Shown: piece after piece, positions 6,986 to 49,620 of the stretch
How the letters are laid out: each line of letters begins with the position of its first letter
Position numbering within the stretch: position 1 is the stretch's first letter
NCBI RefSeq assembly: GCF_000719265.1
Contig: NZ_JOFL01000027.1
Coordinates: forward strand, 7,688-71,687
Length of the DNA stretch: 64,000 nt
Direction: 5' to 3'
Source: Streptomyces roseoverticillatus
GTDB taxonomy: Bacteria; Actinomycetota; Actinomycetes; Streptomycetales; Streptomycetaceae
The notes under the pieces: generated by a model
Told to the model about the DNA's origin: nothing
What the model saw: the letters and a program-made list of their open reading frames with translations, nothing else
The model's database searches: none
Made by a program: the position numbers and the translations under genes

Positions 6986-7531
6986 CTAACGGCGGTCTGA
7001 CGGTTCGACGGCCCAGGGGCGCCGCACGGGACCGGAGGCAATGATTCCGGTCCTACCCAGGGCCTGCAGCCCCCGGAACTCCCCTTCGTAGAAGACCAGC
7101 GGCCGGCCGCCCTCGCGGTACTCGGCCTCCTCGACGCTCCCCACGAAGAGCACGTGGTCTCCCCCGTCGTACGCGGCCCACGGCGTGCAGGAGAGCGTCG
7201 CGAGGGAGCCCGCGAGGCGGGGGGCGAGGCCGGCGGGCGGCCGGGCCGCCCAGCGGGGCGGCGCCTGCGTGCGCCGGCCGGCGAAGCGCTCGGCGAGGTC
7301 CCGCTGGTCCTCGCCGAGCACGTTCACCGTGAACGGCCTGCCGGCGAGGTGCCGTCCGGCCCTGCTCCGGCGGTGGAGCGAGACCAGGACCAGCGCCGGG
7401 TCCAGCGAGACCGCCGTGAAGGCGTTGACGGTCGCGCCGTGCGGGACGCCGTCGACCTCGCACGTCACCACGGTGACGCCGGTGGCGAAGTGCCCCAGGC
7501 AGGCCCGCAGCAGCCGTTCATCGGTGATCAA
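6986..7531 (-). CDS. Flavin reductase domain protein (HpaC-like)
   Basis: NAD(P)H:flavin oxidoreductase of the HpaC / flavin-reductase-like domain family, 181 residues, matching the family length of 160-190. Characteristic parts are FATGVTVVT near residue 16, GATVNAFTAVSLDPALVLVSL (flavin-binding strand region) and the C-terminal strand with VLFVGSVEEAEY. Such enzymes supply reduced FAD to two-component monooxygenases. Here the natural partner is the HpaB/PvcC-like hydroxylase four genes upstream in the same operon. The start is probably TTG at 7531, six bases from the LigB stop; no ATG in frame fits better. It is the last gene of the operon. Family assignment is firm; the pairing is inferred from context. 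Confidence 0.85.
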   Translation of the reverse strand: MITDERLLRACLGHFATGVTVVTCEVDGVPHGATVNAFTAVSLDPALVLVSLHRRSRAGRHLAGRPFTVNVLGEDQRDLAERFAGRRTQAPPRWAARPPAGLAPRLAGSLATLSCTPWAAYDGGDHVLFVGSVEEAEYREGGRPLVFYEGEFRGLQALGRTGIIASGPVRRPWAVEPSDRR

Positions 7532-7537
7532 CGCCCG

Positions 7538-8416
7538 TCACCTCCCCCCGCCGGCCGGCAGGTCGAACCAGAGGTGCACCTGCCCGGTGCCGATCCCGTT
7601 CTCGTACGCGCTGAACAGCCGTCCCCGCGCCCGGCACGCCTCCCCGCCCAGCGCGCCCGCCAGCATCAGGTAGTGGCCGAAGCGGGCCTCGGGCGCGTAC
7701 CGCAGGTACTCCGGCATGGACCGGATCACCTCGTCGTGCCGGCCCGCCTCCAGCCAGGCGATCCGCCGCTCGTCCGCGGCCCGGGCCTCGGGGGTGACGA
7801 TGTTGGCCGGGTCGCCGGCCATGCGGTCGCGCAGTTCGCCGAGCGGCCGGAAGCGGTGGGACAGGCCGCCCGAGGCGAGCAGCAGCACGCGGCGGCCGGC
7901 GAGCCCGGCGATCGCCTCCCCCATGACCTCGCCGATCCTGAGGAAGTCCTCGGTGGTCGCCGTCTGGCAGACGGAGACGGACACCCACGGCTTGCCGGTC
8001 CGCCCGAGGTACGTCCAGAGGTTGAGCGTCGCGTAATGGATCGGCAGGTGCGGTTCGTCGTTGGCCTCGATCCACACCTTCCGCTCCGCCGCCAGGCCGG
8101 CGACCGCGTGCGCGAGCGCGGGGTCGCCGGGCAGGTCGTACGGCAGCCGGCTGATCGCCGACGGCATCTCGTCGGAGGTGAACAGGCCCCGGCGGCGCGG
8201 ATGGGCCGTGATCACCGCTTCGGTCGTGGTGGCCCAGTGGGAGTCGAACACCACGACGGTGTCGTACCCGGCCGTGTCGGTCACCTCGCGGCGGAGCCGT
8301 TCCAGGCCGGTCGCGAGCGTGAAGTCGCTGCCTCCGTTGGCCTCGGTGCGGGCGGGCTCGGGGAACATGATGGCGGGCGCGTGCGAGAGCAGGCCCGCAC
8401 CGACGATGTCGCCCAT
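7538..8416 (-). CDS. LigB-superfamily (type III) extradiol ring-cleavage dioxygenase
   Basis: Non-haem Fe(II) extradiol dioxygenase of the LigB superfamily, 292 residues, most like the 3,4-dihydroxyphenylacetate 2,3-dioxygenase group. Visible family marks are the N-terminal GLLSHAP (metal-ligand His), VVFDSHWATT (second His region) and LLLASGGLSHRFRPL (third conserved block). These enzymes open a catechol ring next to the diol. Strong RBS AAAGGAGA lies before ATG 8416, and the gene starts 12 bases after the reductase gene, inside the isocyanide operon. In this setting the substrate is probably a catechol produced by the HpaB/PvcC-like hydroxylase rather than a nutrient. An extradiol enzyme in a pvc-type locus is the oddest part of this operon. 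Substrate is inferred. Confidence 0.88.
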   Translation of the reverse strand: MGDIVGAGLLSHAPAIMFPEPARTEANGGSDFTLATGLERLRREVTDTAGYDTVVVFDSHWATTTEAVITAHPRRRGLFTSDEMPSAISRLPYDLPGDPALAHAVAGLAAERKVWIEANDEPHLPIHYATLNLWTYLGRTGKPWVSVSVCQTATTEDFLRIGEVMGEAIAGLAGRRVLLLASGGLSHRFRPLGELRDRMAGDPANIVTPEARAADERRIAWLEAGRHDEVIRSMPEYLRYAPEARFGHYLMLAGALGGEACRARGRLFSAYENGIGTGQVHLWFDLPAGGGR

Positions 8417-8428
8417 GGCGAGTCTCCT

Positions 8429-9403
8429 TTACGGGACGAGGAGGAGCTTTCCGGACGTGGCGCGGGAGGCCAGGTCGGTGTGCGCGCGGTGCGCCTCGGC
8501 GAGGGGGTACGTCCCGGCGACGGTGAACGTGAGCGTGCCGTCAAGCAGGCCCCGGAACACCTCGCCCGCCCGCGCCTCGAACTCCTCGACGGTGGCCCGG
8601 AAGTGCTCCAGATAGGGCCGGGTCAGGGTGAGCGAGCCGCCCCACAGCAGCCGCATCACGTCGACGGGCGGCACCGCGCCGCTCGCCCCGCCGAAGAGGA
8701 CCAGCGTGCCGCGCGTGCGCAGCGAGGCGAGGCTCGCGTCGAAGGTGGCCGCGCCCACGCCGTCGTAGACCGCGTGGACGCCTTCCCCGCCGGTGAGCGC
8801 GCGGACCCCGGCGGCCAGGTCGCCGGTCTCGGTGTAGCGGATGACCTCGTCGCAGCCGTTGGCGCGGGCGGTGCGCTCCTTCTCCTCGGTGGAGACCGTG
8901 CCGATGACGCGGGCGCCGCGCCGCGTCAGCATCTGGGTGAGCAGGAGGCCCACGCCACCGGCTGCGGCGTGCACGAGCACGGTCTCGCCCGCGCGGGCCG
9001 GGTAGGAGTCGTGGGCGAGGAAGTGGGCGGTCATGCCGTGGACGAGCACCCCGCCGGCCGTCCGCAGGTCGATGGCGTCGGGCACGACGACGGCCTTGTC
9101 CTCGGGCACGAGCACCCGCTCCGCGTAGCTGCCGAGCACGGTCGTCCAGGCGACCCGGTCACCGGTCTTGAAGCGGGTGACTCCGGGGCCGGTGGCGAGG
9201 ACGACGCCGGAGCCCTCCTCGCCGGGCACGCAGGGAACGGGCAGCGGATAGCGCCCCTCGCGCCGGTACAGGTCGATGAAGTTCACTCCGGCCGCGGCGA
9301 GTTCGACGAGGATCTGTCCTTCGCCGGGCCGCCCGGGGGCGGGCTTCTCGACGTAGAGCTGGACTTCGGGCCCGCCGGTCTCCCGGATCTCGATCGCGTG
9401 CAT
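8429..9403 (-). CDS. Zinc-independent quinone oxidoreductase-like MDR reductase
   Basis: Medium-chain dehydrogenase/reductase of the NADPH:quinone oxidoreductase (QOR) branch, 324 residues. The N-terminal GroES-like domain carries AAGVNFIDLYRREGRYP and PCVPGEEGSG, both diagnostic of QOR, and lacks the Cys/His zinc ligands of alcohol dehydrogenases. The NADPH-binding fold has VHAAAGGVG near residue 150 and YDGVGAATFD further on. Enzymes of this type reduce quinones or activated alkenes. Its ATG overlaps the stop of the asparagine-synthetase gene by one base (TGATG), so translation is coupled. In this operon it could reduce an enone, a quinone or the conjugated product of ring cleavage. Family firm; reaction inferred. 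Confidence 0.87.
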   Translation of the reverse strand: MHAIEIRETGGPEVQLYVEKPAPGRPGEGQILVELAAAGVNFIDLYRREGRYPLPVPCVPGEEGSGVVLATGPGVTRFKTGDRVAWTTVLGSYAERVLVPEDKAVVVPDAIDLRTAGGVLVHGMTAHFLAHDSYPARAGETVLVHAAAGGVGLLLTQMLTRRGARVIGTVSTEEKERTARANGCDEVIRYTETGDLAAGVRALTGGEGVHAVYDGVGAATFDASLASLRTRGTLVLFGGASGAVPPVDVMRLLWGGSLTLTRPYLEHFRATVEEFEARAGEVFRGLLDGTLTFTVAGTYPLAEAHRAHTDLASRATSGKLLLVP

Positions 9404-11280
9404 CAGTGCGCTCCCTTCACATCGGTCAGTCCGACGCCGTACGTGCGCAGCCAGTCGTCGAGCCGGACCGTGGACTCCACGAGGATCCGCTCGAATTCGG
9501 ACAGGCTTCCGGCCGCGGTCCGGGCCGTCATCCGCCGTACCGCGTCGCCGTCGAGGAACGGGTGGAGCGGTGCGTCCCCGTCGCCCGCCGCGGCGGCCAG
9601 GCCGGTGATGAGGGACCGGTCGTAGGCGGGGTCCTGGATGGACGGGTAGGCGGCCTTCTTGCGGCGCAGCACCGATTCCGGCAGCAGGTCGGATGCGGCC
9701 TCGCGGAGCAGCGCCTTCTCCTGGCCGCTGAAGGTCTTCATCTCCCAGGGGACGTTGAAGACGTACTCGACGAGGCGGTGGTCGCAGAACGGCACCCGGC
9801 CCTCCAGGCCGCTCGCCATGCCCATGCGGTCCTTCTTGTCGAGGAGGATGGGCAGCCAGCGGGTGAGGGTGAGGTGGCCGAGCTCGCGGGTCCGCCGGTC
9901 CGCAGCGTTCTCGGTGTCTTCGCCCTCCAGTCGCGGCACCTCGGCCAAAGCGGTCCGGTAGAGGTCGGCCTCGTATTCCGCGAGGTCGATGCCGTCCACG
10001 AACCACGGGTGGAACAGGGACCGCGGGTCGAGGCCACGGTGGGCGCCCAGTTTGAGCCAGGGGAAGGTCTCGGCGCGGCGCGCCTTTGGGTCGGAGAACC
10101 ACAGGTAGCCGCCGAAGACCTCGTCGGCGCCCTCGCCGGACAGCGCGACCGTGGCGTGCTGCCGGACGGCGGCGAAGAGCAGGTACAGCGAGACGTCGAG
10201 GTCGGCGAAGTTGAACGGCAGGTCCCAGGCGCCGAGGACGGTGCGGCGCACGGCCGGGTCGAGGAGCCGGGCGCGGTCGAGGACGATCGCGTGGTGCTCG
10301 GTGCCGGCGTGCCGGGCGACTTCGAGGGCGTACGGGCCGTCCGGCGTGGGCCGGATGGCGTCGGCGCGGAAGTTCTCGGTGTGGCCGGTGAAGTCGACGG
10401 AGAAGGTGGCGAGGCGGTCGCCGCCGGCGGCGCGGGCCCGTGCCGCGAGGGCGGTCACCGTGCTGGAGTCGAGGCCGCCGGAGAGCAGCGAGACGAGGGG
10501 GACGTCCGCGGTCATCTGCCGGGGGACGATGTCGTCGAGCAGCTCGCGGACGCGGGCGACGGTGGTGGAGAGGTCGTCGGTGTGCGGGCGGGCCTCCAGC
10601 GCCCAGTAGCGCTCTTCCTTGATGCCGTCGCGGCCGGCCCGCACGAGGTGTCCGGGCTTGACCTCGCGCATGCCGCGGAAGGGGACGTGTCCGGGGGTGC
10701 GCAGGAAGAGCAGGGCGTCGCAGAGCTCCTCCGCCCCGGCTTCGGCGCGCGCCAGGGGGTTGGCGAGGATCGCCTTGGGCTCGGAGCCGAAGAGGACCCC
10801 GTCGTCCGTCGGGTAGTAGAAGAGCGGCTTGACGCCCAGCCGGTCGCGGACGAGCAGCAGCTCTTCGCGGACGGTGTCCCAGATGGCGATGGAGTACATG
10901 CCGTTGAGGCGGTGGACGAAGTCCGTGCCCCACTGCAGGTAGGCGCGGAGCGCCACTTCGGTGTCGCTGCGGGTCGCGAAGCGGTGCCCGAGCAGGACGA
11001 GTTCCTCGCGCAGCTCGCGGAAGTTGTAGATCTCGCCGCCGTAGGAGATGACGGCGCGCGGCCGGTCTCCGCGGCCCTGTTCCGGGGTGCGCATCGGCTG
11101 CGTGCCGTGTTCCAGGTCGATGACGGCCAGCCGCCGGTGCCCCAGGGCGGCGTGGGTGTCCAGCCATACGCCGCCGGCGTCGGGCCCGCGGGCGGCGAGC
11201 GTGCCGGTCATGGCCTGGACGGTTGCGTGTTCGGTGGTCAGGTCGCGGGTGAAGCCGGTCCATCCGGTGATGCCGCACAT
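9403..11280 (-). CDS. Asparagine synthetase (glutamine-hydrolysing) family amidotransferase
   Basis: Class II glutamine amidotransferase plus ATP-pyrophosphatase, 625 residues, the AsnB architecture. The N-terminus is MCGITGW, so Cys2 is the nucleophile after Met removal. The synthetase half has the PP-loop LLSGGLDSSTVTALAAR near residue 260 and LSGEGADEVFGGYLWF near 370. AsnB-type enzymes adenylate a carboxylate and replace it with an amide; homologues in secondary metabolism amidate pathway acids or close lactam rings. It lies one base after the hydroxylase stop and overlaps the reductase start, so it belongs to the isocyanide operon. A primary-metabolism role is possible but the embedding argues for a pathway-specific acceptor. 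Confidence 0.88.
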   Translation of the reverse strand: MCGITGWTGFTRDLTTEHATVQAMTGTLAARGPDAGGVWLDTHAALGHRRLAVIDLEHGTQPMRTPEQGRGDRPRAVISYGGEIYNFRELREELVLLGHRFATRSDTEVALRAYLQWGTDFVHRLNGMYSIAIWDTVREELLLVRDRLGVKPLFYYPTDDGVLFGSEPKAILANPLARAEAGAEELCDALLFLRTPGHVPFRGMREVKPGHLVRAGRDGIKEERYWALEARPHTDDLSTTVARVRELLDDIVPRQMTADVPLVSLLSGGLDSSTVTALAARARAAGGDRLATFSVDFTGHTENFRADAIRPTPDGPYALEVARHAGTEHHAIVLDRARLLDPAVRRTVLGAWDLPFNFADLDVSLYLLFAAVRQHATVALSGEGADEVFGGYLWFSDPKARRAETFPWLKLGAHRGLDPRSLFHPWFVDGIDLAEYEADLYRTALAEVPRLEGEDTENAADRRTRELGHLTLTRWLPILLDKKDRMGMASGLEGRVPFCDHRLVEYVFNVPWEMKTFSGQEKALLREAASDLLPESVLRRKKAAYPSIQDPAYDRSLITGLAAAAGDGDAPLHPFLDGDAVRRMTARTAAGSLSEFERILVESTVRLDDWLRTYGVGLTDVKGAH

Positions 11281-11281
11281 G

Positions 11282-12793
11282 TCACGCGTCCTCGCTTCCG
11301 GTCCAGGGTCCCCGGCGCCAGCCGTCGAGGTCGTAGTCGTCGAGGCACTGCTGCACGAGCGACTCGTAGCGGGCGAGGCTGCCGCGCCCCGTGGCCCAGC
11401 GGAGCGCGTCCAGCCGGACCTGTTCGCCGTTGCCGGAATAGTTGCGCTCGTAGAGCTCGTGCCGGCCGCCGAACTCGGTGCCGATCGCGTCCCAGACCAG
11501 CTTCAGCAGCTTGATCCGGTCGTGGGCGGAGGCGTCGGCGCCGCGGTAGAAGCGGTCGATCAGCGGCCGCAGTTCGGGGTTGGCGAGGTCGCGGGCGCTG
11601 GAGGGCACGGCGAGGGGCGCGCCGCCGAGGGTGGTCTCGAACAGCTCGTGGACGCGGTCCCACACCTGGGCGTTGTACATGCGCATGGCGGAGGCGTGCT
11701 CCAGGCGCGGTACGACCGTCCCGCCGCTGCCCGGCTCCGGGTCGTAGGCCATGGCCGAGGTCAGCGCCCACACCATGTCGCGCATGGTGACGACCTCGCC
11801 GACGGCGGCCTGGACGCCGCGGAAGGCGTCGGTGCCGTTGGCCTTGGTGCCCCGGGAGAGGAGCCCGGCCATGAGCTCCAGCTTGACGCTCAGGCGGATG
11901 CCGGACTGGAAGTTGTAGAGGTTCGGGAAGCCGGACGTGGCGTAGAAGCCGGTGGCGCGCTCGATGTCGCGGTGGACGAGGACGTCCTCCCAGGGGATCA
12001 GTGCCTCGTCGAGCAGGAGCACGCTGTCGTTCTCGTCGAAGCGGCTGCTGAGCGGGGCGTCGAAGGGGCTGGCGGCGGCTTGCGCGTAGGGCGTGCGGCA
12101 GACGAGCTTCACGCCGGGGTTGTCCATGCGGACGAAGAAGATGAGGGCGAAGGCCTCGGCCTTGCCGGGGGCGAGGGCCGCCGAGCCGACCGGGGCGACG
12201 AAGCCCGCGTTGGTGATCGCCGATCCCGTCGCCAGCATCTTCGCGCCGCTGACCACGACCCCGGCGTCGGTCTCGCGCACGGCGTGCACGAACACGTCCT
12301 CCATGTCGTGGATCGCGCGCTTGCGGTCCACGGGCGGGTTGATGATGACGTGGTTGAGGTACAGCGCCTTGCGGGCGAACTCCTCGTACCAGGCAGTGGC
12401 GTTGGCGGCGTACGGGCCGTAGTAGCCGGCGTTGACGCCGAGGCCCGCCATGAAGGACGCCTTGTACTCGGGGGTGCGGCCGAGGAATCCGTAGCTCATC
12501 CGCGCCCAGGCGGCGATGGCCTCGCGGGCCTCGGCCAGCTCGGCCGCCGACCGGCTCGGCTTGAAGAACTTGTGCGTGCGGATGCCCGTCGGCTCGTCGA
12601 CGCCGGTCAGCACCCCGGCGGTCACCGGGTCGTGCAGGGCGTCGTAGAGGCGGGCCACGGACAGCGCGGAGTTACGGAAGGCCGGGTGGCGGGTGACGTC
12701 CTTGACGCGCTCGCCGCCGACGTAGACCTGCCGGCCGTCGCGCAGGCTCTCCAGGTAGTCGTCGCCCGTCATGAGGCGGTTGTCGTGGGTCAC
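11282..12793 (-). CDS. 4-hydroxyphenylacetate 3-hydroxylase-like FADH2 monooxygenase (PvcC/HpaB family)
   Basis: Acyl-CoA-dehydrogenase-fold flavin monooxygenase of the HpaB family, 503 residues (family about 480-520). Recognisable segments include the opening RLMTGDDYLESLRDGRQVYV, the central INPPVDRKR, the stretch ETDAGVVVSGAKMLATGSA and ALIPWEDVLVHRD. It uses FADH2 from a separate reductase to hydroxylate phenols ortho to the OH. In the Pseudomonas pvcABCD system the equivalent PvcC hydroxylates the isonitrile-bearing tyrosine product. It starts at GTG 12793 with a 4-base GTGA overlap with the oxygenase gene upstream, so the two are coupled. Its partner reductase is likely the 6986-7531 gene. 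Family firm; exact substrate inferred. Confidence 0.88.
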   Translation of the reverse strand: MTHDNRLMTGDDYLESLRDGRQVYVGGERVKDVTRHPAFRNSALSVARLYDALHDPVTAGVLTGVDEPTGIRTHKFFKPSRSAAELAEAREAIAAWARMSYGFLGRTPEYKASFMAGLGVNAGYYGPYAANATAWYEEFARKALYLNHVIINPPVDRKRAIHDMEDVFVHAVRETDAGVVVSGAKMLATGSAITNAGFVAPVGSAALAPGKAEAFALIFFVRMDNPGVKLVCRTPYAQAAASPFDAPLSSRFDENDSVLLLDEALIPWEDVLVHRDIERATGFYATSGFPNLYNFQSGIRLSVKLELMAGLLSRGTKANGTDAFRGVQAAVGEVVTMRDMVWALTSAMAYDPEPGSGGTVVPRLEHASAMRMYNAQVWDRVHELFETTLGGAPLAVPSSARDLANPELRPLIDRFYRGADASAHDRIKLLKLVWDAIGTEFGGRHELYERNYSGNGEQVRLDALRWATGRGSLARYESLVQQCLDDYDLDGWRRGPWTGSEDA

Positions 12794-13677
12794 CGGACCA
12801 GCCCCGGGTTGTCGAGCGGCGGCGTGCCGAGCACCTGGACGCGGCGCAGGTGGCGCGGGGACCCGCTGGTGAAGGCGTTACGGCCGTGCAGCAGCGTGTA
12901 GTTGTCGGTGACGACCAGGTCGCCGGTCTCCCAGACGTGGGCGTAGAGGTGCGCGGGGTCGTACAGCGCGGCGCGCAGGCTTCGGTGGACCTCGGCGATC
13001 TCGTCCTCGGGCAGGCCGGTGAAGCGCAGGTCGGGGTGGTTGACGAAGCTGTCGCCGACGGCGGCGGTGGGCTCGTTGTAGCGGATGACGGGCGCGCCGT
13101 GGACGGGGTGGGCGGTCACGACGGGCGAGACGGTGACGCTGTCGTAGAACTCCATCGTGCGCTGGTAGGTGCCGGTGACCTGCGCCCAGCGGGCGACGGT
13201 CCGCGGGTCGGTGCGTTGCAGGACGGCGGTGGTGTGGGAGAACGTGGTCTCGCCGCCGTTGCCTTCTCCGGGGGCGTGCACGCACTGGAACACCTGGAAC
13301 TCGGGGATCTGCTCGCGGTACATGCCGTCCCAGTGCATGGGCATGTAGCTGGAGTCGAAGATGTGGTCCTCGGGCTGTTCCCGCTCGACGAGTTCGAGCA
13401 CGGTCCCGAAGGGCCAGACACTGGGCTGTCCCCAGCGCTCGCAGTAGGCGGAGAGCGCTTCGGGGCCGTCGAAGGCGCCGAAGCCGCGGAGCAGCACGAC
13501 GTGGTGCTCGCGGACGAGGGAGCGCAGCGGGGCGACGGGGATGTCCTCGACGCGCAGTCCGGGCTCCAGGGCCCGTATCGCCAGCCCGAAGGGGGTGACC
13601 GGGGCGACGTCGTAGCGGAGGTCGGTGAGGATGCCGACGGCTGCGTCCGCGTCTGCAGTTGCTTCTGCGTGTGTCAT
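12790..13677 (-). CDS. TauD/TfdA-family Fe(II)/2-oxoglutarate oxygenase, PvcB-like
   Basis: TauD-family dioxygenase of 295 residues, matching PvcB/IsnB length. The HxD iron motif is seen in YMPMHWDGMYREQIPEF (H-x-D within MHWDG). The distal His and the 2-oxoglutarate-binding Arg are expected in DNYTLLHGRNAFTSGSPRHLRRVQ. In pvc- and isn-type pathways this enzyme follows the isocyanide synthase and oxidatively decarboxylates or desaturates the tyrosine isonitrile to a vinyl isonitrile. RBS AGAGAGG precedes ATG 13677. The gene lies 54 bases after the synthase stop and its own stop overlaps the hydroxylase start. The partnership is what makes the PvcB assignment; TauD members alone are versatile. 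Confidence 0.87.
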   Translation of the reverse strand: MTHAEATADADAAVGILTDLRYDVAPVTPFGLAIRALEPGLRVEDIPVAPLRSLVREHHVVLLRGFGAFDGPEALSAYCERWGQPSVWPFGTVLELVEREQPEDHIFDSSYMPMHWDGMYREQIPEFQVFQCVHAPGEGNGGETTFSHTTAVLQRTDPRTVARWAQVTGTYQRTMEFYDSVTVSPVVTAHPVHGAPVIRYNEPTAAVGDSFVNHPDLRFTGLPEDEIAEVHRSLRAALYDPAHLYAHVWETGDLVVTDNYTLLHGRNAFTSGSPRHLRRVQVLGTPPLDNPGLVR

Positions 13678-13731
13678 GGGTGCCTCTCTCGTGCGGGGAG
13701 GGTGTGGGGGGACGGGCGGCCGGCCCGGTGT

Positions 13732-14718
13732 TCAGGCGCAGGCCCGGTTCCACGGGCCGCGGGGCGCGCCGGCCTGTTCCAGGACGTAGTGGCTGGGGCG
13801 TCCGTGGGCGTGGACCAGCCGGGCGCCCGCCTCCTCGGCTTCCGCGCGCTTCATGAGGGTGAAGCGGCCTCCGGTCCCGACCGCGACGCTGTGCCAGGGC
13901 GTCAGCCAGGTGTCCGAGGTGTCGGCGAGCAGGATGCCGATCTTGTCCGTGCTGCAGGGCTGCGGGTGGATCGACAGGCGGACGGCCGTGGGGAAGAGCT
14001 GGTCGAGGAGGTTTCCCCAGGCCCGGCTGCGCTGGATGACGCGGTAGGCGAGGTCACGGCACTTGCGCTGCAGGGCGGAGCGGGTGCCGGTCCAGGCGGG
14101 GCCGGACAGGTCCTCCAGCATGAAGCGGGTGATGCCGCGGTACATGGCGAGCGGAGCGCCCCCGCCGCGCACCTCCTCGCGCAGCTCTTCCGTCGTGGGG
14201 GCGTAGCCGGCGGAGAGCATGGTGCGCATGTCCTCGTGGCCGGCGCCGCTGTAGACGTCGTCCAGGCTGAACTGTTCGAGCCGGTCGGCGCCGATCCTGG
14301 TGATCATGGCGTCGAGGGCCTGTGCGTAGGCGGTGACGTCCTCGTCGCGCACGCCCAGCAGGTCGTTGAAGACCCTTCCGTCGGAGCAGATCAGGATGGC
14401 CGCTCCGGGCGCGTACACCTCGCTGATGCGTTCGCACAGCTCGTTGAGGAACCGCAGTGCGAGCTCCTCGGCCAGGTCGGGCAGGGGGCCGAGGACCTTG
14501 GCCGGGTTGGGGGACTTCGTGGGGAAGGCAGGCAGGACGAATTCGATCCGCCGGCCGTCCCGCATGGCGCCGTGCACCGCGTCCAGGTGGTGCCGTACGC
14601 AGCGCAGGCAGACGCGTCCGGCGCATCCGCCCTCGCGCATTCTGCGCTGGTGGGACAGGACTTCCCGGACGACTTCTACGGCGGCCAGGTCGATATCGGG
14701 TGCGGCCGTTTCGGACAC
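13732..14718 (-). CDS. Isocyanide synthase, PvcA/IsnA (DIT1) family
   Basis: Isonitrile synthase family protein, 328 residues, close to PvcA and IsnA. These enzymes convert the amino group of Tyr or Trp to an isonitrile with carbon from ribulose 5-phosphate. Family signatures are IEFVLPAFPTKSPNPAKVLG near residue 55, LPDLAEELALRFLNELCERI, and ILICSDGRVFNDLLGV, the most conserved DIT1/PvcA block. I chose GTG 14718 because GGGAGG lies 6 bases upstream and the family alignment starts there; a longer frame to 14934 is open but has no family sequence. It is the first gene of the operon and has SARP-type repeats upstream. Tyrosine is the likely substrate given the HpaB- and LigB-like partners. Confidence 0.92.
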   Translation of the reverse strand: MSETAAPDIDLAAVEVVREVLSHQRRMREGGCAGRVCLRCVRHHLDAVHGAMRDGRRIEFVLPAFPTKSPNPAKVLGPLPDLAEELALRFLNELCERISEVYAPGAAILICSDGRVFNDLLGVRDEDVTAYAQALDAMITRIGADRLEQFSLDDVYSGAGHEDMRTMLSAGYAPTTEELREEVRGGGAPLAMYRGITRFMLEDLSGPAWTGTRSALQRKCRDLAYRVIQRSRAWGNLLDQLFPTAVRLSIHPQPCSTDKIGILLADTSDTWLTPWHSVAVGTGGRFTLMKRAEAEEAGARLVHAHGRPSHYVLEQAGAPRGPWNRACA

Positions 14719-14759: not shown

Positions 14760-14789
14760 GCGCATGAAAGGCGCATGAGAAGCGCACAA
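14760..14789 (-). promoter_or_regulatory. Three direct repeats at 11-bp spacing upstream of pvcA: SARP operator
   Basis: GCGCATGA at 14760-14767, GCGCATGA at 14771-14778 and GCGCACAA at 14782-14789 recur at exactly 11-bp steps. On the coding strand they read TCATGCGC-type heptamers. This is the layout known for OmpR-like SARP activators, which bind heptamer repeats on one DNA face overlapping the -35 region. The array lies about 42 bases before the GTG of the isocyanide synthase gene, and a SARP gene lies just upstream. Confidence 0.7.
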
Positions 14790-14975: not shown

Positions 14976-17975
14976 TCACCGTCCGGCGGGCCCGGCGGTC
15001 CGCCGGAGGCGGTCGAGTTCCTGCCGGGCGCGGGCGGCCCAGAACGGCATGCGCAGGCTGCGGAACCCGTTCAGCGCCGTCGTGAGGTGGTGGACGGCCT
15101 GGTCACCGTCGCCGAGGGCCGCGCGCGTGCTGCCCAGCCAGAGGGCGGTGAGGGCTTCGCCCCGCCGTTCGCCGAGCTCGGTGAAGATCGCGGCGGCCTG
15201 GCCGAGCGGGGCGAGGGCCCACGCGGCCTGGCCGGGGCTGCGGGTCTCGGCGTGCATGCGGCCGAGGGCCAGCAGGGCGTACGCCTCGCCGGGCCGGTGC
15301 CGCAGGGACCGGTACTCGGCCAGGGCCCGGTGCAGGTGGCGGGCGGCCCGTTCGGCGCGGCCGTGGCCGATCTCGGCCCAGGCCAGGAGCTGCAGGACGT
15401 CGGCGAGGGCGAGCGGGTGGCCGAGGCGCTCGGCCGTGGCCACGGCCGGTTCGAGCGCGGCGACGGCCTCGGCCTCGCGCCCCTGGCAGGAGAGCGCGAA
15501 GCCCAGGCTGCGCAGGGCCATGACGTGGCCGTGCTTGTCGCCCAGCCGGTTCATGACGGCGGCCGCGGAGGCGGCGTCGTCGTGGGCGAGCTCCGCCATG
15601 CCGCGGTCGGCGATCGCGAAGCCGCGGTGGATGCGCAGGCGGGCGGCGTGGTGCTCCTCGCCGAGCGCGTCCAGTTGGGCGATGGCGCCGGCGTAGCGGG
15701 TCAGGGCGTCGTCCACCCGCCCGCGGACGGCGCGGGCCCGGGCCAGGGAGCCCTGGGCGACCGCGACGGCGACGGGGTCGCCGTCGGCCGCGGCGCGGTC
15801 GAGTGCGGCGCGGGCGACGTGCTCCCACTCGTCCCACCAGTTGCGCAGGTGGCAGACGTCCTCCAGGGCGGCGGCGAGCCCGGCCGTCTGCGGTCCGTAG
15901 CCGGCGCCGGCGGCGAAGCCGACCGCGGTGACCAGACTCGTGCGCTCGCTCTCCAGCCATCCGACGAGATCGCCCGCCGCGCCGGGGGCGTGCCCGCCGG
16001 TGCCTCTTCGGATGAGCTGGTCGCCCGCCGCGCGGACGCGGGCGAGCCAGCCGTCCAGGACCCGGGCGACCGCGGCCCGCCGCCACGACTCCGGCTCGTC
16101 GGCGAGGGCGCGCTCGGCGGCGTAGGCGTGCAGCAGGTCGTGCATGCGGTAGCGCGGCTGCCGCTGCCCGGCCGGGGACTCGATCTGTACGAGGTTGGCG
16201 TCGATGAGCGCGTCGGTGGCGCGGTCCGCGGCGAGTTCGTGGCCGGTGCCGGGGACGGTGGGGTCGGCCAGGGCGGCGGCGAGGGCCCAGCCGGGGAACT
16301 CCGGTGCGGGGAGCAGCCCGATGGCCCGGAAGGCGCGGGCGGCGTCGGGGGCCAGGCCGTGGTAGCTGGCGGCGACGCACGTGCGGACGGCGAGGTCGCC
16401 GACGGTGAGCTCGGCGAGCACCCCGCGCTCGTCGGCCAGCCGGTCGGCCAGGCGGCGGACCTGCCAGTCGGGGCGGCCGGCGAGCCGCGCCGCGGCCACG
16501 CGCAGCGCCAGGGGCAGGCCGGCGCAGGCGGCCAGGATCCGCCCGGTCGCCTCGGGCTCCGCCGCGAGCCGCTGCGGGCCGGCGATGCGCCGCAGCAGGT
16601 CCTGCGACTCCTCGTCGTCGAAGGGGTCGACGTCGATGAGGTGCGCGTCCGTGAGGCCGGCGAGCCGTGCCCTGCTGGTGACGAGGGCGGCGCTGCCGGG
16701 GGTGCCGGGGAGCAGCATCCGGATCTGGGCCTCGTCGCGCGCGTCGTCGAGGAGGACGAGCACCTTGCGGTCGGCGAGCAGCGAGCGGTAGAGCGCGGCC
16801 CGCTCCTCGGTGGCCTCGGGGATGGACGAGCCGGGGACGCCGAGGCTGAGCAGCAGGTTGGCGAGGATCGCGCCGGGCGTGCGCTGGGGGCCGCGGGTGC
16901 CGTCGAGGTGCAGGAAGAGCCGGCCGTCGGGGAAGTCGCCCCGGAGGTGGTGGGCGAGCCGGGTGGCCAGGGCGGTCTTGCCGACGCCGGGAAGGCCGGT
17001 GAGGATCACGACGGGCACGGCGCAGGGCGTGGTGCTGCCGGGCCGTCTCGCGGAGGGCCCGATCAGGGCGGCGACGCGCTCCAGCAGCCGGCTCCGGCCG
17101 ACGAAGTCCGCGTCGTCGGAGGGCACTTGGACGGTGGGCTGCCAGGCGTCGGCCGGCCGTGCGGGCTGCGCCGCGGCGGGCGGCGCGCCCAGCTCCGGGT
17201 CCCTGGTGAGGATCGCGTGGTGGAGCCTGCGCAGTGCGTCGCCGGGGTCGATGCCGAGTTCGTCGCGGAGGGCGGTGCGGGCGAGGGCGTAGGACTGCAG
17301 GGCGTCGCCCGGCTGGTGGCTGCGGTACTGCGCGGTCATCAGCTTGGCCCACAGCGATTCGCGCAGCGGGTAGCGGGCCGTCTCCGCGCGCAGCGGGCCC
17401 ACCAGTTCGCGGGGCTCGCCGAGGGCGAGGCGGGCCTCGGCGTGGTCCTCGAAGGCCGCGAGCCGCGCCTCCTCCAGGCGGGCGACCTCGCCGAGCAGGG
17501 CGTCGTGGTGCGCCACCCCTTCGAACGGGCTGCCGCGCCACAGCGCCAGCGCCTCCTCCAGGGCGTCGGCCGCGGCCCGGTGCTCGCCGGCGGCCAGGGC
17601 GGTGCGGCCGCGTGCGGCGAGGACCTCGAAGCGGTGCAGGTCGGCCTCGCCGGGGAACACCTGCAGGCGGTAGCCGCCGTTGCCCTGGCTCAGCCGCTCC
17701 TCGCCGGAGCCCTGGCCGGTCCCCGGTCCGGCGGCCGGGCTCAGAACCTTGCGCAGGACGGCGGCGTAGCTGCGGATGTTGGCCTGGGCCGAGGCCGGCG
17801 GGGCCTCGCCCCACACGGCGTCGCACAGCCGCTCGCCGGAGACGGCGGTGTTGGCGTTGACGAGCAGCATGGCGAGCAGGGTCCGCTGCTTCGGTCCCCC
17901 GAGCGGGAGGACCCGGCCGTCCGCGACGGCCGCGAGGGGCCCCAGCACCTTGAACTCGACACGCGTGTGCACCAC
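14976..17975 (-). CDS. AfsR/SARP-family regulator: OmpR-like DBD, BTAD, NB-ARC, TPR
   Basis: Large SARP-type transcriptional activator of 999 residues. Residues about 1-95 form the winged-helix DNA-binding domain (VEFKVLGPLAAVADGRVLPL, then AANIRSY-type recognition region). Residues about 100-250 form the bacterial transcriptional activation domain (LRDELGIDPGDALRRLH). An NB-ARC ATPase follows with P-loop GLPGVGKTALATRL near 326 and Walker B LVLLDDARDEAQ. The C-terminal third, about 600-980, is TPR-like. The start is GTG 17975 behind GGAAGGGCGG. It points toward the isocyanide operon with about 257 bases between them, holding 11-bp-spaced repeats, so it is the likely pathway activator. Target assignment is inferred. 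Confidence 0.88.
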   Translation of the reverse strand: MVHTRVEFKVLGPLAAVADGRVLPLGGPKQRTLLAMLLVNANTAVSGERLCDAVWGEAPPASAQANIRSYAAVLRKVLSPAAGPGTGQGSGEERLSQGNGGYRLQVFPGEADLHRFEVLAARGRTALAAGEHRAAADALEEALALWRGSPFEGVAHHDALLGEVARLEEARLAAFEDHAEARLALGEPRELVGPLRAETARYPLRESLWAKLMTAQYRSHQPGDALQSYALARTALRDELGIDPGDALRRLHHAILTRDPELGAPPAAAQPARPADAWQPTVQVPSDDADFVGRSRLLERVAALIGPSARRPGSTTPCAVPVVILTGLPGVGKTALATRLAHHLRGDFPDGRLFLHLDGTRGPQRTPGAILANLLLSLGVPGSSIPEATEERAALYRSLLADRKVLVLLDDARDEAQIRMLLPGTPGSAALVTSRARLAGLTDAHLIDVDPFDDEESQDLLRRIAGPQRLAAEPEATGRILAACAGLPLALRVAAARLAGRPDWQVRRLADRLADERGVLAELTVGDLAVRTCVAASYHGLAPDAARAFRAIGLLPAPEFPGWALAAALADPTVPGTGHELAADRATDALIDANLVQIESPAGQRQPRYRMHDLLHAYAAERALADEPESWRRAAVARVLDGWLARVRAAGDQLIRRGTGGHAPGAAGDLVGWLESERTSLVTAVGFAAGAGYGPQTAGLAAALEDVCHLRNWWDEWEHVARAALDRAAADGDPVAVAVAQGSLARARAVRGRVDDALTRYAGAIAQLDALGEEHHAARLRIHRGFAIADRGMAELAHDDAASAAAVMNRLGDKHGHVMALRSLGFALSCQGREAEAVAALEPAVATAERLGHPLALADVLQLLAWAEIGHGRAERAARHLHRALAEYRSLRHRPGEAYALLALGRMHAETRSPGQAAWALAPLGQAAAIFTELGERRGEALTALWLGSTRAALGDGDQAVHHLTTALNGFRSLRMPFWAARARQELDRLRRTAGPAGR

Positions 17976-19694: not shown

Positions 19695-20474
19695 ATGGGT
19701 AGGGTGACGACGCCCACGACGCCGTACCCCGAAGGCTGGTTCTGCATCGGTTTCTCCCGGGAGTGGAAGGCCGGCAGCGTCGGCACCCGGCGGTTCGCGG
19801 GCGGCGACGCCGTCGTCTACCGCACCCGGCGCGGGGTGCTCCGGGTCACCCGGCCCTACTGCCCCCACCTGGGGGCCCACCTCGGCGCCGGCGGCACCGT
19901 CGACGGCGAGTACCTGGTCTGCCCCTTCCACAGGTTCGCCTTCGCCCCGGACGGCACGTGCGCGAGGACGCCGTACGGGACGCCCCCCAGGGCTTCGCTC
20001 ACCCTGCTGCCCTCCCGCGAGGCGTACGGCATCGTCTGGACGTGGCACTCCCCCGACGGCGCCCCGCCGTCCCGGAAACTGCCTTCCCTGCCCGAACCCC
20101 TCGCCGGCCCCCGCGCGTTCCGCGCCACGGAAGAGGCGGGCACTCCCCAGGAAGTGACGGAGCGCGTCACCGGCCGGATCCTGTCCCGCTCCGGCTCCCG
20201 GCACGTCAGCCTCCGGGCCCTGGGCCCCGGAGCCGCGCTCGTCGTGATCGAGCCGGTGCGGCGTCCCCTGCACGCAGCGCCGTGGGGCCTCGTCCTGTGG
20301 GTCCTCGCCACCCCCGTCTCCCCGGGCCGGGTCCGCCGTTGGACGGCCTGCAGCGCCGCGGTCGCCCCGGCCCGCCTCCCCCCGCCGCTCCCTCACCGCG
20401 CCCGGCAGAACGACCCGGCCCTCCGCGGCGGCAGGGGCACCGGCTCCCCCACCCCCTCGGACCCGGGGTCGTAG
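19695..20474 (+). CDS. Rieske [2Fe-2S] protein lacking the catalytic iron motif
   Basis: A 259-residue homologue of KshA-like Rieske oxygenases. The [2Fe-2S] ligands are intact: C56-P-H58 and C76-P-F-H79. After residue 110 it aligns well with the paralogue at 21466-22323, but about 34 residues holding the ENxxDxxHxxxxH catalytic motif are absent between EVTER (153-157) and SRHVSLR (168-174). The C-terminus after about residue 228 (PARLPPPLPHRA onward) is not family-like: its last 82 bases are the antisense of the terpene synthase 3' end. It could be a ferredoxin-like electron carrier for the paralogue or a decaying gene. The start is ATG 19695, with GTG 19704 possible. It diverges from the chitinase. 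Confidence 0.75.
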   Translation: MGRVTTPTTPYPEGWFCIGFSREWKAGSVGTRRFAGGDAVVYRTRRGVLRVTRPYCPHLGAHLGAGGTVDGEYLVCPFHRFAFAPDGTCARTPYGTPPRASLTLLPSREAYGIVWTWHSPDGAPPSRKLPSLPEPLAGPRAFRATEEAGTPQEVTERVTGRILSRSGSRHVSLRALGPGAALVVIEPVRRPLHAAPWGLVLWVLATPVSPGRVRRWTACSAAVAPARLPPPLPHRARQNDPALRGGRGTGSPTPSDPGS

Positions 20475-21454
20475 GCGATGACGGAGGTGATGTCGGGATC
20501 GAGGCGCACCCACGCCCCCCGCAGCAGGTTCCCGCGGAAAGCGGCCCCGTTGTAGCGCGTCCCGGAGGCGTGCACGACCAGGTTCCCCTGGAACAGCATC
20601 CTGAGCGCTTCCGCATAGGACGCCATTCCCGGTTCCCCGGAGACGAGTTCACTTTCCATGGCCACATAATCCGCTTCGACGGCGCGGACCAGTTCGCACG
20701 CCCTGTAGACGGCCCGCTGGAGCGAAATGCCGTCCCGCCGCATCCAGAGGGTCAGAATGCTGGCGGCGGCGCAGCCCTTGGCCAGTTCCCTCCGGTAGGA
20801 GTACACGTCATTGATGACCAGCACGTGCTCGACGGCCTTCACCTTGAGGGCCCGGAGCGCCTCCTCGTGGCCGGACACGTCACAGCCGACCGCGTATTCG
20901 GCGATGCCGATGTTGGCCTCGTACCCCACGTCGCTCACCCGCCAGGCCAGGAATTCCTCATCGGTCATGCGGTGCGTCTCGTGCGGGGCGGAGCCGGTCG
21001 TGCGGGAGTCGATCCAATCCCCGAGCGCCGCGTTGATCCTGCTGCGGAACGTCCTTCCCAGTCCGTCCAGGAAGGGGTTGATGATGGCGGCCAGGGTCTC
21101 CTCGACGGCGGTCTCGGGCCGCTTCTCCTGGGCGATGACCCGCTTCAGGCCGGCCACCATCTCCTTCGCCCCGATTCCCGTCCAGCCCTCGTCGATCATG
21201 TCGTCGATCAGGTACGTGATCATCACGTATTTCGCCGCCGCCAGGATCCGCTCCATGTCGGCCGACTGCGGGGCCCACAGGCAGACGAGGCGGGCGGACT
21301 GATCCTGCCGGATCTTCGCCGCATAGCGATTCAGGACGGGGTGCCCAGCGACGTACTCGGCCAGCAGGGCCTCCGCTTCCGCCACGCGCGGATGGACGTG
21401 AATAGGCAGGCGGGTCCCGATCTGCGGGAAGTGGATGATCTCACGCAGTTCCAT
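20393..21454 (-). CDS. Class I terpene synthase
   Basis: Terpene cyclase of 353 residues, the usual single alpha-domain size in Streptomyces. The Asp-rich Mg2+ site is D84-D85-M-I-D88-E89, and the NSE triad is N215-D-V-Y-S219-Y-R-R-E223, both complete, so the enzyme should ionise a prenyl diphosphate. An Arg (172) sits about 43 residues before the NSE motif as the diphosphate sensor, and an RY pair occurs in GTRYNGAA. Product and chain length cannot be read from sequence. RBS GGAGGGA precedes ATG 21454, 11 bases after the Rieske-like gene, forming an operon. The 3' end overlaps the convergent Rieske gene by 82 bases. Oxidative tailoring by the flanking Rieske proteins is inferred. Confidence 0.9.
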   Translation of the reverse strand: MELREIIHFPQIGTRLPIHVHPRVAEAEALLAEYVAGHPVLNRYAAKIRQDQSARLVCLWAPQSADMERILAAAKYVMITYLIDDMIDEGWTGIGAKEMVAGLKRVIAQEKRPETAVEETLAAIINPFLDGLGRTFRSRINAALGDWIDSRTTGSAPHETHRMTDEEFLAWRVSDVGYEANIGIAEYAVGCDVSGHEEALRALKVKAVEHVLVINDVYSYRRELAKGCAAASILTLWMRRDGISLQRAVYRACELVRAVEADYVAMESELVSGEPGMASYAEALRMLFQGNLVVHASGTRYNGAAFRGNLLRGAWVRLDPDITSVIAYDPGSEGVGEPVPLPPRRAGSFCRAR

Positions 21455-21465
21455 CTTCCCTCCGG

Positions 21466-22323
21466 TCAGTCGGGCGCCACCGGGTAGAACTGGCGGGCCC
21501 AGTGCCGGTAGGCACCGATCGGCCCATCCTCATTGTTCAGCCGCGGGTGGGGCAGATAGGCCTTGTGGTGGAATACGGGCCAGTCCGCGCGGGAGTCGTG
21601 AAAGGACCAGTGGTTCATCCCGGCGGCCACCGCGCGTTCGAGGGCGCGGCGGGCTGCGGGAGGAATGCGGAGCAGGGGGTCGAGCACCGCACTGGCCGCG
21701 AGGCAGTACCGGATGCGGCCCGGTCCGACGGGGGTGACCAGCACCCACTGGGCGGCGCGCAGGTGACAGCGCGGCAGGTCGATCGTCATGAGCGCCGCCC
21801 CCAGACCGAAATACCGGATGCTGACGTCCTGGACGGTGGAGAAGAACGGAAGGCTGCGCCCGACGCGGACCGTGAGGGAGTAGAACGGCCCGTCGCCCTC
21901 GGGCGCCGTCAGGATGTCGAGGAAATCGACGCCGTGGAGTTCGACGACGTGCCGGTGGTCGATGAAGTTCTCCATCACCTCCTGCGGGTGGCCCGCCAGT
22001 TCGACCGCACGGAAGGTTCGGGGGGCGGCGAAGTCACCGGTGGGCGGCGGGACTTCCCACGAGGGCGGCGTGCGGTCGTGAGAATGCCCTGCCCAGACGA
22101 TGCCGTGCGCTTCCCGTACGGGCAGCGCGGACCGCAGCGCTCCGCCGCGGGTGCGCTGGATGAGCAGGCCGGTTCCCATGAAGCGGCACATGCGGACGGT
22201 TCCCGGTTTCCACTGCCACGAGAATCCCGCACAAAACCATCCGTTCGGGTAAGGCAATGGCTCCGGGAAGGCCTCGTCCGCCGCTTGTGCCCGGTACGGA
22301 GAGACATATGTACGCGCCCGCAT
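21466..22323 (-). CDS. Rieske-oxygenase homologue lacking the [2Fe-2S] segment
   Basis: A 285-residue KshA-like oxygenase in which the catalytic mononuclear-iron motif is kept, E118-N-F-I-D122-H-R-H125-V-V-E-L-H130, and the typical C-terminal block with DGPIGAYRHWARQFYP is present. The Rieske part is missing: where the paralogue (19695-20474) has about 54 residues with CxH and CxxH, this protein joins GGALRS directly to ALPVREAHGIVW (residues 60-77). The reading frame is uninterrupted and RBS GAGGGTG stands before ATG 22323, which argues for a maintained gene. Terpene synthase follows 11 bases later. Without a cluster it would need an external electron donor, possibly the paralogue. Alternatively it is an early pseudogene. 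Confidence 0.78.
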   Translation of the reverse strand: MRARTYVSPYRAQAADEAFPEPLPYPNGWFCAGFSWQWKPGTVRMCRFMGTGLLIQRTRGGALRSALPVREAHGIVWAGHSHDRTPPSWEVPPPTGDFAAPRTFRAVELAGHPQEVMENFIDHRHVVELHGVDFLDILTAPEGDGPFYSLTVRVGRSLPFFSTVQDVSIRYFGLGAALMTIDLPRCHLRAAQWVLVTPVGPGRIRYCLAASAVLDPLLRIPPAARRALERAVAAGMNHWSFHDSRADWPVFHHKAYLPHPRLNNEDGPIGAYRHWARQFYPVAPD

Positions 22324-48363: not shown

Positions 48364-48578
48364 ATATTACGGCACAACGATTTCACGCTGCCGTCCGCTG
48401 ACTTTCCCTTCGCGAACTGCCCTGTCTCAGCACGGTCACATCGTGCTGCCCGCCTGCCGAGCATCTTCATCGCCGCCGAGGCCGATTTCAGTGATCGGCC
48501 GTAACGGCCTCTCCCCTGTTCCGGGCCTACTTGCCGCGCGCATCGCGTTGTCAATAGGTGACCAACAAGCAGAGAGTC

Positions 48579-49616: not shown

Positions 49617-49620
49617 TCAA

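What the first reader, a model, noticed from the sequence alone, without database searches (positions are those of the whole stretch)
6986..14718. Isocyanide operon that also encodes an extradiol ring-opening enzyme and an amidotransferase
Seen: seven minus-strand genes with overlaps or gaps of 1-54 bases encode PvcA-, PvcB- and HpaB/PvcC-like enzymes plus AsnB-type, QOR-type, LigB-type and flavin-reductase proteins. Known: PvcA makes an isonitrile from an aromatic amino acid, PvcB oxidises it, PvcC-type enzymes make a catechol, and LigB enzymes open catechol rings. Inferred: the pathway does not stop at a styryl isonitrile but opens the aromatic ring, with later reduction and amide formation (or ring re-closure to a pyridine, pyrrole, lactam or cyclopentenoid). 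I know of no described isonitrile pathway with this exact set.
Basis: partly seen in the sequence, partly recalled or inferred. Interest (0 to 1): 0.87.

Follow-up and report, generated by a model that had tools for sequence, protein, structure and literature searches.

The report
Isonitrile operon with ring-opening enzyme
A conserved set of eight Streptomyces genes appears to build a reactive tyrosine-derived isonitrile, then open its aromatic ring and cap the new acid as an amide, a combination not found in any described isonitrile pathway that could be searched here.

Summary
Seven adjacent minus-strand genes (6986-14718) encode PvcA, PvcB, HpaB, AsnB, QOR, LigB and flavin-reductase proteins, with an AfsR/SARP-type regulator upstream. 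A PvcA-seeded scan gave 17 full-length Streptomyces loci; 16 keep PvcA-PvcB-HpaB-AsnB-QOR-LigB in order, and one (S. mashuensis) has lost the last three. A SARP-box-like repeat sits before pvcA in the window and in 19 of 19 SARP-linked loci. PvcB carries published marks of the decarboxylating type in 19 of 19 operon copies. If these hold, the intermediate is a vinyl isonitrile without a carboxylate, so the acid that AsnB amidates is most simply the one made by ring cleavage. The LigB relatives of 56-64% identity in Streptomyces sit, where examined, in a different gene setting; the one annotated is a dihydroxyphenylacetate catabolic cluster whose HpaE and HpaG are absent from the operon. Ring opening is thus a well-supported genomic inference, untested as chemistry. 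LigB-AsnB pairs on contigs outside the Streptomyces operon range suggest a wider family. Ten searches of an open-access library found no product.

The parts
14976..17975 (-). AfsR/SARP-type transcriptional regulator (BTAD, NB-ARC, TPR), presumed operon activator
   Evidence: Pfam and NCBIfam; upstream of PvcA in 19 of 19 Streptomyces loci (in L017 about 4 kb upstream)
14760..14787 (-). three half-sites RTGCGY at 11-base spacing, SARP-box-like; the two overlapping pairs begin 58 and 69 bases before the pvcA start
   Evidence: the only two matches of RTGCGY-N5-RTGCGY in the 64-kb window (0.70 expected, 19 of 100 shuffles reach 2); at least one pair in 19 of 19 SARP-linked loci, none in L124
13732..14718 (-). 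PvcA-like isonitrile synthase (tyrosine type by nearest relative)
   Evidence: PF05141 E 1.4e-80; NF045653 301 bits, below its 600-bit cut-off; best solved relative PvcA 3e59 E 6e-86
12790..13677 (-). PvcB/PIsnB-like Fe/2OG desaturase, decarboxylating type by sequence marks (HWD...H iron site; R at K107, N at N188)
11282..12793 (-). HpaB/PvcC-like two-component FAD monooxygenase, presumed to make the catechol
   Evidence: PF11794/PF03241; best solved relatives 4oo2 and 6qyh E about 1e-148
9403..11280 (-). AsnB-type glutamine amidotransferase, MCGI and SGGxDSS motifs intact
   Evidence: motifs in 19 of 19 operon copies; best solved relative is the hydroxyamidotransferase 7ylz E 4e-174, E. coli AsnB only 3e-42
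8429..9406 (-). QOR-type NADPH-dependent enone/quinone reductase
   Evidence: PRK10754 252 bits, below its cut-off
7538..8416 (-). LigB-type extradiol dioxygenase, nearest fold 3,4-dihydroxyphenylacetate 2,3-dioxygenase
   Evidence: AlphaFold2 model pLDDT 92.5 matches 8iq8 TM 0.86, plant DOPA 4,5-dioxygenases TM 0.69-0.73
6986..7531 (-). flavin reductase, presumed partner of HpaB; optional member
   Evidence: PF01613; present in 11 of the 16 relatives with the full core

Best explanation
A SARP-controlled Streptomyces gene cluster that makes a ring-opened, amidated isonitrile from L-tyrosine. Steps: (1) PvcA turns the amino group of tyrosine into an isonitrile; (2) PvcB, of the PIsnB type, removes CO2 and desaturates to 4-hydroxystyryl isonitrile (C9H7NO, 145.05); (3) HpaB with reduced flavin adds the second hydroxyl (C9H7NO2, 161.05); (4) LigB cuts the catechol outside the diol, most likely at the 2,3 bond as its 3,4-dihydroxyphenylacetate-cleaving relatives are expected to do, giving an isocyanovinyl 2-hydroxymuconic semialdehyde (C9H7NO4, 193.04); (5) QOR reduces a conjugated C=C and AsnB turns the new carboxylate into an amide, with possible closure to a pyridine carboxamide (C9H7N3O, 173.06) or a lactam. 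Gene content, order, conservation and sequence marks are shown; every reaction is inferred from family knowledge.
For: The core is fixed in 16 of 17 full-length relatives, in different chromosomal settings except among close relatives. Two contig-cut relatives (L004, L013) have further core genes on other contigs. A LigB-seeded search of 295 genus genomes, independent of PvcA, found 7 operon-type LigBs; all 7 genomes have PvcA-PvcB-HpaB, linked in 6 (the own genome's linkage). Regulator and repeat site conserved. PvcB marks: R at the K107 position in 19 of 19 operon copies, N (17) or H (2) at the N188 position; six non-operon Streptomyces PvcB-like proteins lack them (rule from PMC9467999). 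LigB keeps the residues at the iron-site and acid-base positions (H12, H60, E243, H187; roles recalled, positions). LigB relatives at 56-64% identity lie elsewhere: none of 34 loci fetched (of 68 such matches) has an operon partner nearby, and the one annotated (L067) carries HpaE- and HpaG-like enzymes, which the operon block lacks, so the cleaved product is presumably handed to QOR and AsnB instead. G018 keeps PvcA-PvcB-HpaB and AsnB-QOR-LigB as two unlinked blocks in one genome (L124, L058).
Against: No product or enzyme assay. The PvcB rule is correlative: single mutations did not switch selectivity. S. mashuensis (L010) keeps PvcA-PvcB-HpaB without AsnB, QOR and LigB, so the upper half may be useful alone. 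AsnB also accompanies PvcA in 21 of 40 other Streptomyces loci without LigB, so AsnB could act on an acid that does not come from ring cleavage. LigB-AsnB pairs occur on 12 contigs of lower identity where no PvcB was listed (the PvcB list was cut at 120). The own genome holds weaker HpaE (19 places, best 458 bits) and HpaG (3 places, best 187 bits, one inside this window at 49882-50484) relatives; none reaches the cut-offs (638, 276), but neither do the catabolic ones of L067 (542, 213), so a lower pathway elsewhere in the genome is not excluded. Isonitriles bind Fe(II), which could poison LigB. QOR's substrate is unknown.
Confidence: 0.58

Rival explanations
1. Two-branch assembly: PvcA-PvcB-HpaB make a catechol vinyl isonitrile whose ring stays intact, while LigB-QOR-AsnB act on a different catechol and supply a second building block.
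For: The two halves separate physically: G018 has them on two contigs (L124, L058) and S. mashuensis keeps only the upper half. LigB and AsnB relatives share a contig length on 30 contigs; 20 of these had no listed PvcB, but 8 of the 20 are operon-type Streptomyces (LigB 78% or more), leaving 12 with LigB 62-68% (the PvcB list was cut at 120).
Against: No conserved gene would join the two pieces (no ligase, NRPS or transferase in the block); HpaB is the only catechol-making enzyme in the block and lies directly upstream of AsnB-QOR-LigB.
Confidence: 0.17
2. AsnB amidates the amino-acid carboxylate, giving a tyrosine-isonitrile amide, before or instead of PvcB decarboxylation; ring opening follows or is minor.
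For: A distant AsnB sits near PvcA, typically with a P450 between, in 21 of 40 other Streptomyces PvcA loci with no LigB in the stretch fetched, where the tyrosine carboxylate is the obvious acid.
Against: The P450-type AsnBs form their own clade far from the operon AsnBs; operon PvcBs carry the decarboxylating marks in 19 of 19, so the carboxylate should be gone.
Confidence: 0.13
3. Hydroxamate rather than amide: AsnB transfers hydroxylamine as TsnB9 does, giving a hydroxamic acid isonitrile.
For: The best solved relative of AsnB is a hydroxyamidotransferase, E 4e-174 against 3e-42 for E. coli AsnB.
Against: The TsnB6/TsnB7 type amido-oxygenases that make glutamyl hydroxamate (PMC13418202, passages) are not among the genes of the conserved block; they were not searched genome-wide. 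A proposed plain amidotransferase also shares the TsnB9-like inserts (Dip5, PMC13122635, passages). Sequence alone does not decide the donor.
Confidence: 0.06
4. The operon is catabolic or detoxifying, a rearranged hydroxyphenylacetate or tyrosine breakdown pathway with PvcA and PvcB as passengers.
For: HpaB, HpaC-like and HpaD-like proteins are the first enzymes of 4-hydroxyphenylacetate breakdown; weaker HpaE and HpaG relatives exist elsewhere in the own genome.
Against: No HpaE or HpaG in the block; AsnB and a SARP regulator fit biosynthesis; PvcA and PvcB accompany the operon-type LigB in all 7 genomes that have it, and none of the 34 catabolic-type LigB loci fetched has them.
Confidence: 0.04

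Closest known systems
Rhabduscin / byelyankacin vinyl isonitrile pathways (PvcA + PIsnB type)
   Same: PvcA-type synthase followed by a decarboxylating Fe/2OG desaturase to 4-hydroxystyryl isonitrile (marks tested; chemistry from PMC9467999, parts 1-2 and passages)
   Different: those end in glycosylation (recalled) and keep the aromatic ring; here HpaB, LigB, QOR and AsnB follow and the block holds no glycosyltransferase
Paerucumarin pathway of Pseudomonas aeruginosa (pvcABCD)
   Same: PvcA, PvcB and a ring-hydroxylating flavin enzyme (PvcC, recalled as HpaB-like)
   Different: P. aeruginosa PvcB keeps the carboxylate (PMC9467999) and the product is a coumarin; no LigB, QOR or AsnB (recalled)
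3,4-Dihydroxyphenylacetate (homoprotocatechuate) catabolic clusters of Streptomyces
   Same: LigB 56-64% identical, HpaD-like
   Different: the representative annotated (L067) carries HpaE- and HpaG-like, P450 and glutamine-synthetase-like genes; no operon partner in 34 of 34 loci fetched
Streptomyces PvcA-P450-AsnB-MFS-FecCD-ABC clusters (no product known to me)
   Same: PvcA with an AsnB-type amidotransferase; 21 of 40 other PvcA loci fetched
   Different: P450 instead of PvcB/HpaB, no LigB, metallophore-like transporter genes; AsnB of a distant clade
TsnB9 (trichostatin), Dip5 (dipyrimicin, proposed) and PcsA (polyene carboxamide) AsnB-type tailoring enzymes
   Same: amidotransferase-type enzymes acting on a small-molecule carboxylate (TsnB9; Dip5; PcsA: listing only, its AsnB kinship recalled)
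   Different: none was seen there with an isonitrile or a ring-cleaved acid
Fungal cyclopentenyl isonitriles of Trichoderma (dermadin, trichoviridin)
   Same: tyrosine-derived isonitriles whose carbon skeleton can be drawn from a 4,5-extradiol-cleaved catechol vinyl isonitrile (recalled and inferred; one search gave listings only)
   Different: fungal; genes not compared here; the LigB in this operon resembles 2,3-cleaving enzymes more

Membership tests
PvcA/PvcB isonitrile pathway, vinyl isonitrile branch | PvcA (DIT1_PvcA) homologue | tested here: met
   NCBIfam TyIsonSynPvcA matched below its cut-off
PvcA/PvcB isonitrile pathway, vinyl isonitrile branch | PvcB homologue with HxD...H iron site and K/R107 plus N/H188 marks of the decarboxylating type | tested here: met
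   19 of 19 operon copies
PvcA/PvcB isonitrile pathway, vinyl isonitrile branch | isonitrile detected in the producer | not testable with these tools
   needs culture and mass spectrometry
4-hydroxyphenylacetate / homoprotocatechuate catabolism | HpaB, HpaC-like and HpaD-like upper enzymes | tested here: met
   all below the NCBIfam equivalog cut-offs
4-hydroxyphenylacetate / homoprotocatechuate catabolism | HpaE and HpaG in the same gene block | tested here: not met
   none among the seven genes or the conserved block
4-hydroxyphenylacetate / homoprotocatechuate catabolism | HpaE and HpaG anywhere in the own genome | tested here: inconclusive
   best 458 and 187 bits, below the cut-offs, which the catabolic L067 proteins (542, 213) do not reach either
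Type II extradiol dioxygenase (LigB fold) | LigB fold and conserved His/His/Glu plus acid-base His | tested here: met
   residue roles recalled
Type II extradiol dioxygenase (LigB fold) | 2,3 (proximal) rather than 4,5 (distal) cleavage | tested here: inconclusive
   fold nearer to a 2,3-cleaving enzyme (TM 0.86) than to DOPA 4,5-dioxygenases (0.69-0.73), and relatives catabolic; the cleaved bond is not shown
TsnB-type hydroxamate cassette | TsnB6/TsnB7 amido-oxygenase partners beside the amidotransferase | tested here: not met
   not among the genes of the block by family; not searched genome-wide
SARP-regulated biosynthetic cluster | SARP gene adjacent and direct-repeat site at 11-base spacing before the first gene | tested here: met
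   binding not tested; the repeat form of SARP sites is recalled

The most novel reading that the evidence does not exclude
A genetically tractable bacterial route in which an extradiol dioxygenase opens the aromatic ring of a tyrosine-derived vinyl isonitrile and the fragment recloses, either to an isocyanovinyl pyridine carboxamide (a likely copper ligand) or to a cyclopentenyl isonitrile of the kind known from Trichoderma, with relatives of the LigB-AsnB pair across several phyla.
Probability: 0.3. Interest if true: 0.85.

Novelty: new variant of a known kind. Interest (0 to 1): 0.64.

Why it matters
As far as I recall, known bacterial tyrosine isonitriles keep their aromatic ring, and the fungal cyclopentenyl isonitriles, which seem to need ring opening, have not been tied to genes. 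A compact, conserved, SARP-linked operon would make ring opening of an isonitrile catechol directly testable in Streptomyces, would ask how an iron(II) enzyme tolerates an isonitrile substrate, and points to a new class of small isonitrile metabolites (possible metal ligands or antibiotics). If LigB instead makes a separate building block, the operon is still an unassigned isonitrile cluster; by my count 20 Streptomyces genomes hold all six core genes: the own one, 16, G058, and those of L004 and L013 in contig pieces.

Tried and rejected
Malleonitrone was considered as a product of a related Burkholderia cluster and rejected: it is a condensate of malleobactin and aeruginaldehyde (PMC11446287, PMC9958762, passages). 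B. pseudomallei 'cluster 7 (isonitrile)' led nowhere: PMC9040570 gives only the label in the passages seen, and the papers of Biggins and of Klaus that it cites are not held. B. stagnalis PvcA-PvcB (L220) has no LigB, AsnB or HpaB match within 12 kb. Searches for AsnB of the operon kind in Gammaproteobacteria found one 53% and one 51% relative in 369 and 250 genomes, with only the best few candidates of each genome scored; the first has no other operon gene nearby, the second was not fetched. The three gammaproteobacterial PvcA genomes have no AsnB at E 1e-60. Plasmid searches gave no operon. A catabolic reading was set low for lack of lower-pathway genes in the block. AsnB of the PvcA-P450 clusters as the sister of the operon AsnB was rejected by the tree. 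My regular expressions for the LigB glutamate and for HpaB were too strict and failed on some or all copies; for LigB I rely on the alignments and the printed N-termini, and I make no HpaB claim from it. G640 (L196) first looked like a further operon genome, but its contig has the same length (48,005) and its genes the same identities as L005, so it is not counted again; G060, G257, G219 and G045 likewise repeat L002, L009, L011 and L018.

Full report
Observation. Spacing runs from 4-base overlaps to a 54-base gap. The 999-residue AfsR/SARP-type regulator at 14976-17975 lies on the same strand upstream and belongs to the unit.

Conservation. A peptide-pattern scan with PvcA over one genome for each of 84,980 species gave 22 loci; 19 are from Streptomyces (one record is titled Streptosporangium nondiastaticum; a LigB of the same identity is named Streptomyces nondiastaticus by NCBI) and three are gammaproteobacterial with PvcA-PvcB only. 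Of the 19, two (L004, L013) are cut by contig ends. Of the 17 full-length loci, 16 have PvcA-PvcB-HpaB-AsnB-QOR-LigB in that order and strand (in L012 PvcA rests on the tblastn match of residues 17-314), and 11 of these 16 have the flavin reductase next. The exception, L010 (S. mashuensis), has a 72-residue remnant of AsnB and no QOR or LigB at the locus, and no LigB at E 1e-50 elsewhere in its genome. For L004, PvcB through flavin reductase lie on another contig (L218); for L013, HpaB to LigB lie on another contig (L219) and PvcB on a third (P0255). Flanking genes are shared only inside small groups: the window, L001, L002 and L003 share the downstream genes, and L006/L009, L014/L019 and L007/L057 share flanks, so the block occurs in many chromosomal settings. 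The scan was seeded with PvcA, so I also searched with LigB: in an even sample of 295 Streptomyces genomes (own included), 72 have a LigB at E 1e-50; 7 (73-100% identical) are of the operon type, 6 with the full block and one (G018) with PvcA-PvcB-HpaB and AsnB-QOR-LigB on two contigs. Four of these seven repeat genomes of the first scan.

Regulation. In the window and in 19 of 19 SARP-linked loci (L001-L019) a direct repeat RTGCGY-N5-RTGCGY begins 57-59 bases before the matched pvcA start (L012 counts -124 because its match starts at residue 17), with a further half-site at -69 in five loci and the window. It is absent in L124, which has no SARP match beside it. In the same loci the pattern occurs before 14 of 283 called gene starts; that control includes the pvcA starts themselves, which I did not subtract, so it is not independent. 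The window holds only two matches, both here, but 19 of 100 shuffles also reach two, so position and conservation carry the argument, not the count. Heptamer repeats at 11-base spacing are the known form of SARP sites (recalled).

PvcB type. PMC9467999 (parts 1-2 and search passages read) states that vinyl-isonitrile-forming enzymes have K or R at PIsnB position 107 and N or H at 188, while isocyanoacrylate formers have L and C; one orthologue of the first type behaved as predicted, but single mutations did not switch the product. All 19 operon PvcBs examined (window and 18) have R, and N (17) or H (2); L124 has R and N; six other Streptomyces PvcB-like proteins have V or A and A or L. The predicted intermediate is 4-hydroxystyryl isonitrile, which has no carboxylate. 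If so, the acid needed by AsnB must come from ring opening or from outside.

LigB. The catabolic-type LigBs of Streptomyces are 53-63% identical to the operon LigBs in aligned pairs. Their neighbour genes recur across loci; in the one representative annotated by profile (L067) they are HpaE- and HpaG-like enzymes, a P450, a glutamine-synthetase-like enzyme and aldehyde dehydrogenases. None of the 34 loci fetched, of 68 such matches, has PvcA, PvcB, HpaB, AsnB or QOR matches. Twenty-three positions are conserved one way in the 19 operon LigBs and another way in the 34 catabolic-type ones, among them A13, M17, F18, N119, H127, A153 and T154, as expected for a changed substrate; their distance to the iron was not measured. 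The AlphaFold2 model (pLDDT 92.5) is nearest to 3,4-dihydroxyphenylacetate 2,3-dioxygenase 8iq8. I infer recruitment from a dihydroxyphenylacetate-cleaving enzyme whose substrate has the same catechol and a two-carbon side chain. Against a clean separation from catabolism: the own genome has weaker HpaE (19) and HpaG (3) relatives, one HpaG-like gene lying in this window at 49882-50484; the curated cut-offs do not decide, because the L067 proteins miss them too.

AsnB. Glutaminase and synthetase motifs are intact in 19 of 19. The best solved relative is the hydroxyamidotransferase 7ylz, identified as TsnB9 in PMC13122635 (passages). A tree places the operon AsnBs with those of Amycolatopsis, Crossiella, Burkholderia and Pseudomonas, and places the AsnBs of the PvcA-P450 clusters in a distant clade (several nodes, the operon clade among them at 0.79, have support below 0.8). 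So AsnB probably joined isonitrile clusters at least twice.

Second cluster type. 58 of the 295 genomes have a PvcA match. Of 40 further PvcA loci fetched from them (not all listed matches were fetched; stretches up to 20 kb), 21 have AsnB, 0 have LigB and 1 (L124) has HpaB. The common layout is FecCD-type ABC transporter, MFS, AsnB, P450, PvcA. The window's own genome has a second PvcA of this broad kind with a P450 and a metal P-type ATPase, without AsnB in the stretch (L125).

Wider distribution. Four more contigs link AsnB with PvcB. Ten of the 12 are 6-45 kb long, including a MAG named Cyanobacteria bacterium RYN_339, which indicates real linkage of LigB and AsnB outside Streptomyces; a Luteimonas MAG contig of 11.7 kb links AsnB with PvcB. 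The DNA of these contigs could not be read here, so whether PvcA is beside the pairs is unknown. Identical lengths are an indirect sign, not a map.

Literature. Ten searches of the open-access library listed no isonitrile pathway with an extradiol dioxygenase and an amidotransferase. Most subscription papers are not held, so a published assignment could exist.

Verdict. A real, conserved, probably SARP-regulated isonitrile cluster with an unusual tailoring set; ring opening followed by amidation is the best reading, at about 0.58. It is a new variant of a known kind (PvcA/PvcB isonitrile pathways), not a new kind of system.

Noticed in passing
L125 (own genome G000:C5:175000-194900): A second PvcA (53% identical) in the same genome, with a P450, a metal P-type ATPase and, by shared gene groups, a FecCD-like ABC transporter; part of a Streptomyces cluster type found in many genomes, often with AsnB and MFS genes.
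   Followed up: partly
L010 13402-13620: S. mashuensis carries a 72-residue AsnB remnant after HpaB; AsnB, QOR and LigB are missing while PvcA-PvcB-HpaB remain.
   Followed up: partly
L124 and L058: One unnamed Streptomyces genome (G018; contig length 192,685 as in an S. cinnamoneus entry) keeps PvcA-PvcB-HpaB and AsnB-QOR-LigB on two different contigs, its PvcA only 54% identical to the window's but HpaB 78%.
   Followed up: partly
L067 2598-16091: A Streptomyces dihydroxyphenylacetate-type cluster also holds a type III glutamine-synthetase-like enzyme, a glutamyl-GABA-hydrolase-like protein and a PuuC-like dehydrogenase, which might mean gamma-glutamylated arylethylamine (tyramine or dopamine) breakdown.
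   Followed up: no
window 20393-22509, minus strand: A family 2 terpene synthase (PF19086) next to a protein with the KshA C-terminal oxygenase domain, outside the isonitrile unit.
   Followed up: no
window 48558-55073, plus strand: A run of HMGL-like, fumarylacetoacetate hydrolase (weakly HpaG-like), PhyH, TPP-enzyme, MFS and SDR genes that looks like a second small pathway.
   Followed up: no
L221 9932-20900: A Burkholderia stagnalis replicon carries two isocyanide-synthase genes, one with a PvcB-like second half, beside UbiA prenyltransferase and methyltransferase genes.
   Followed up: no
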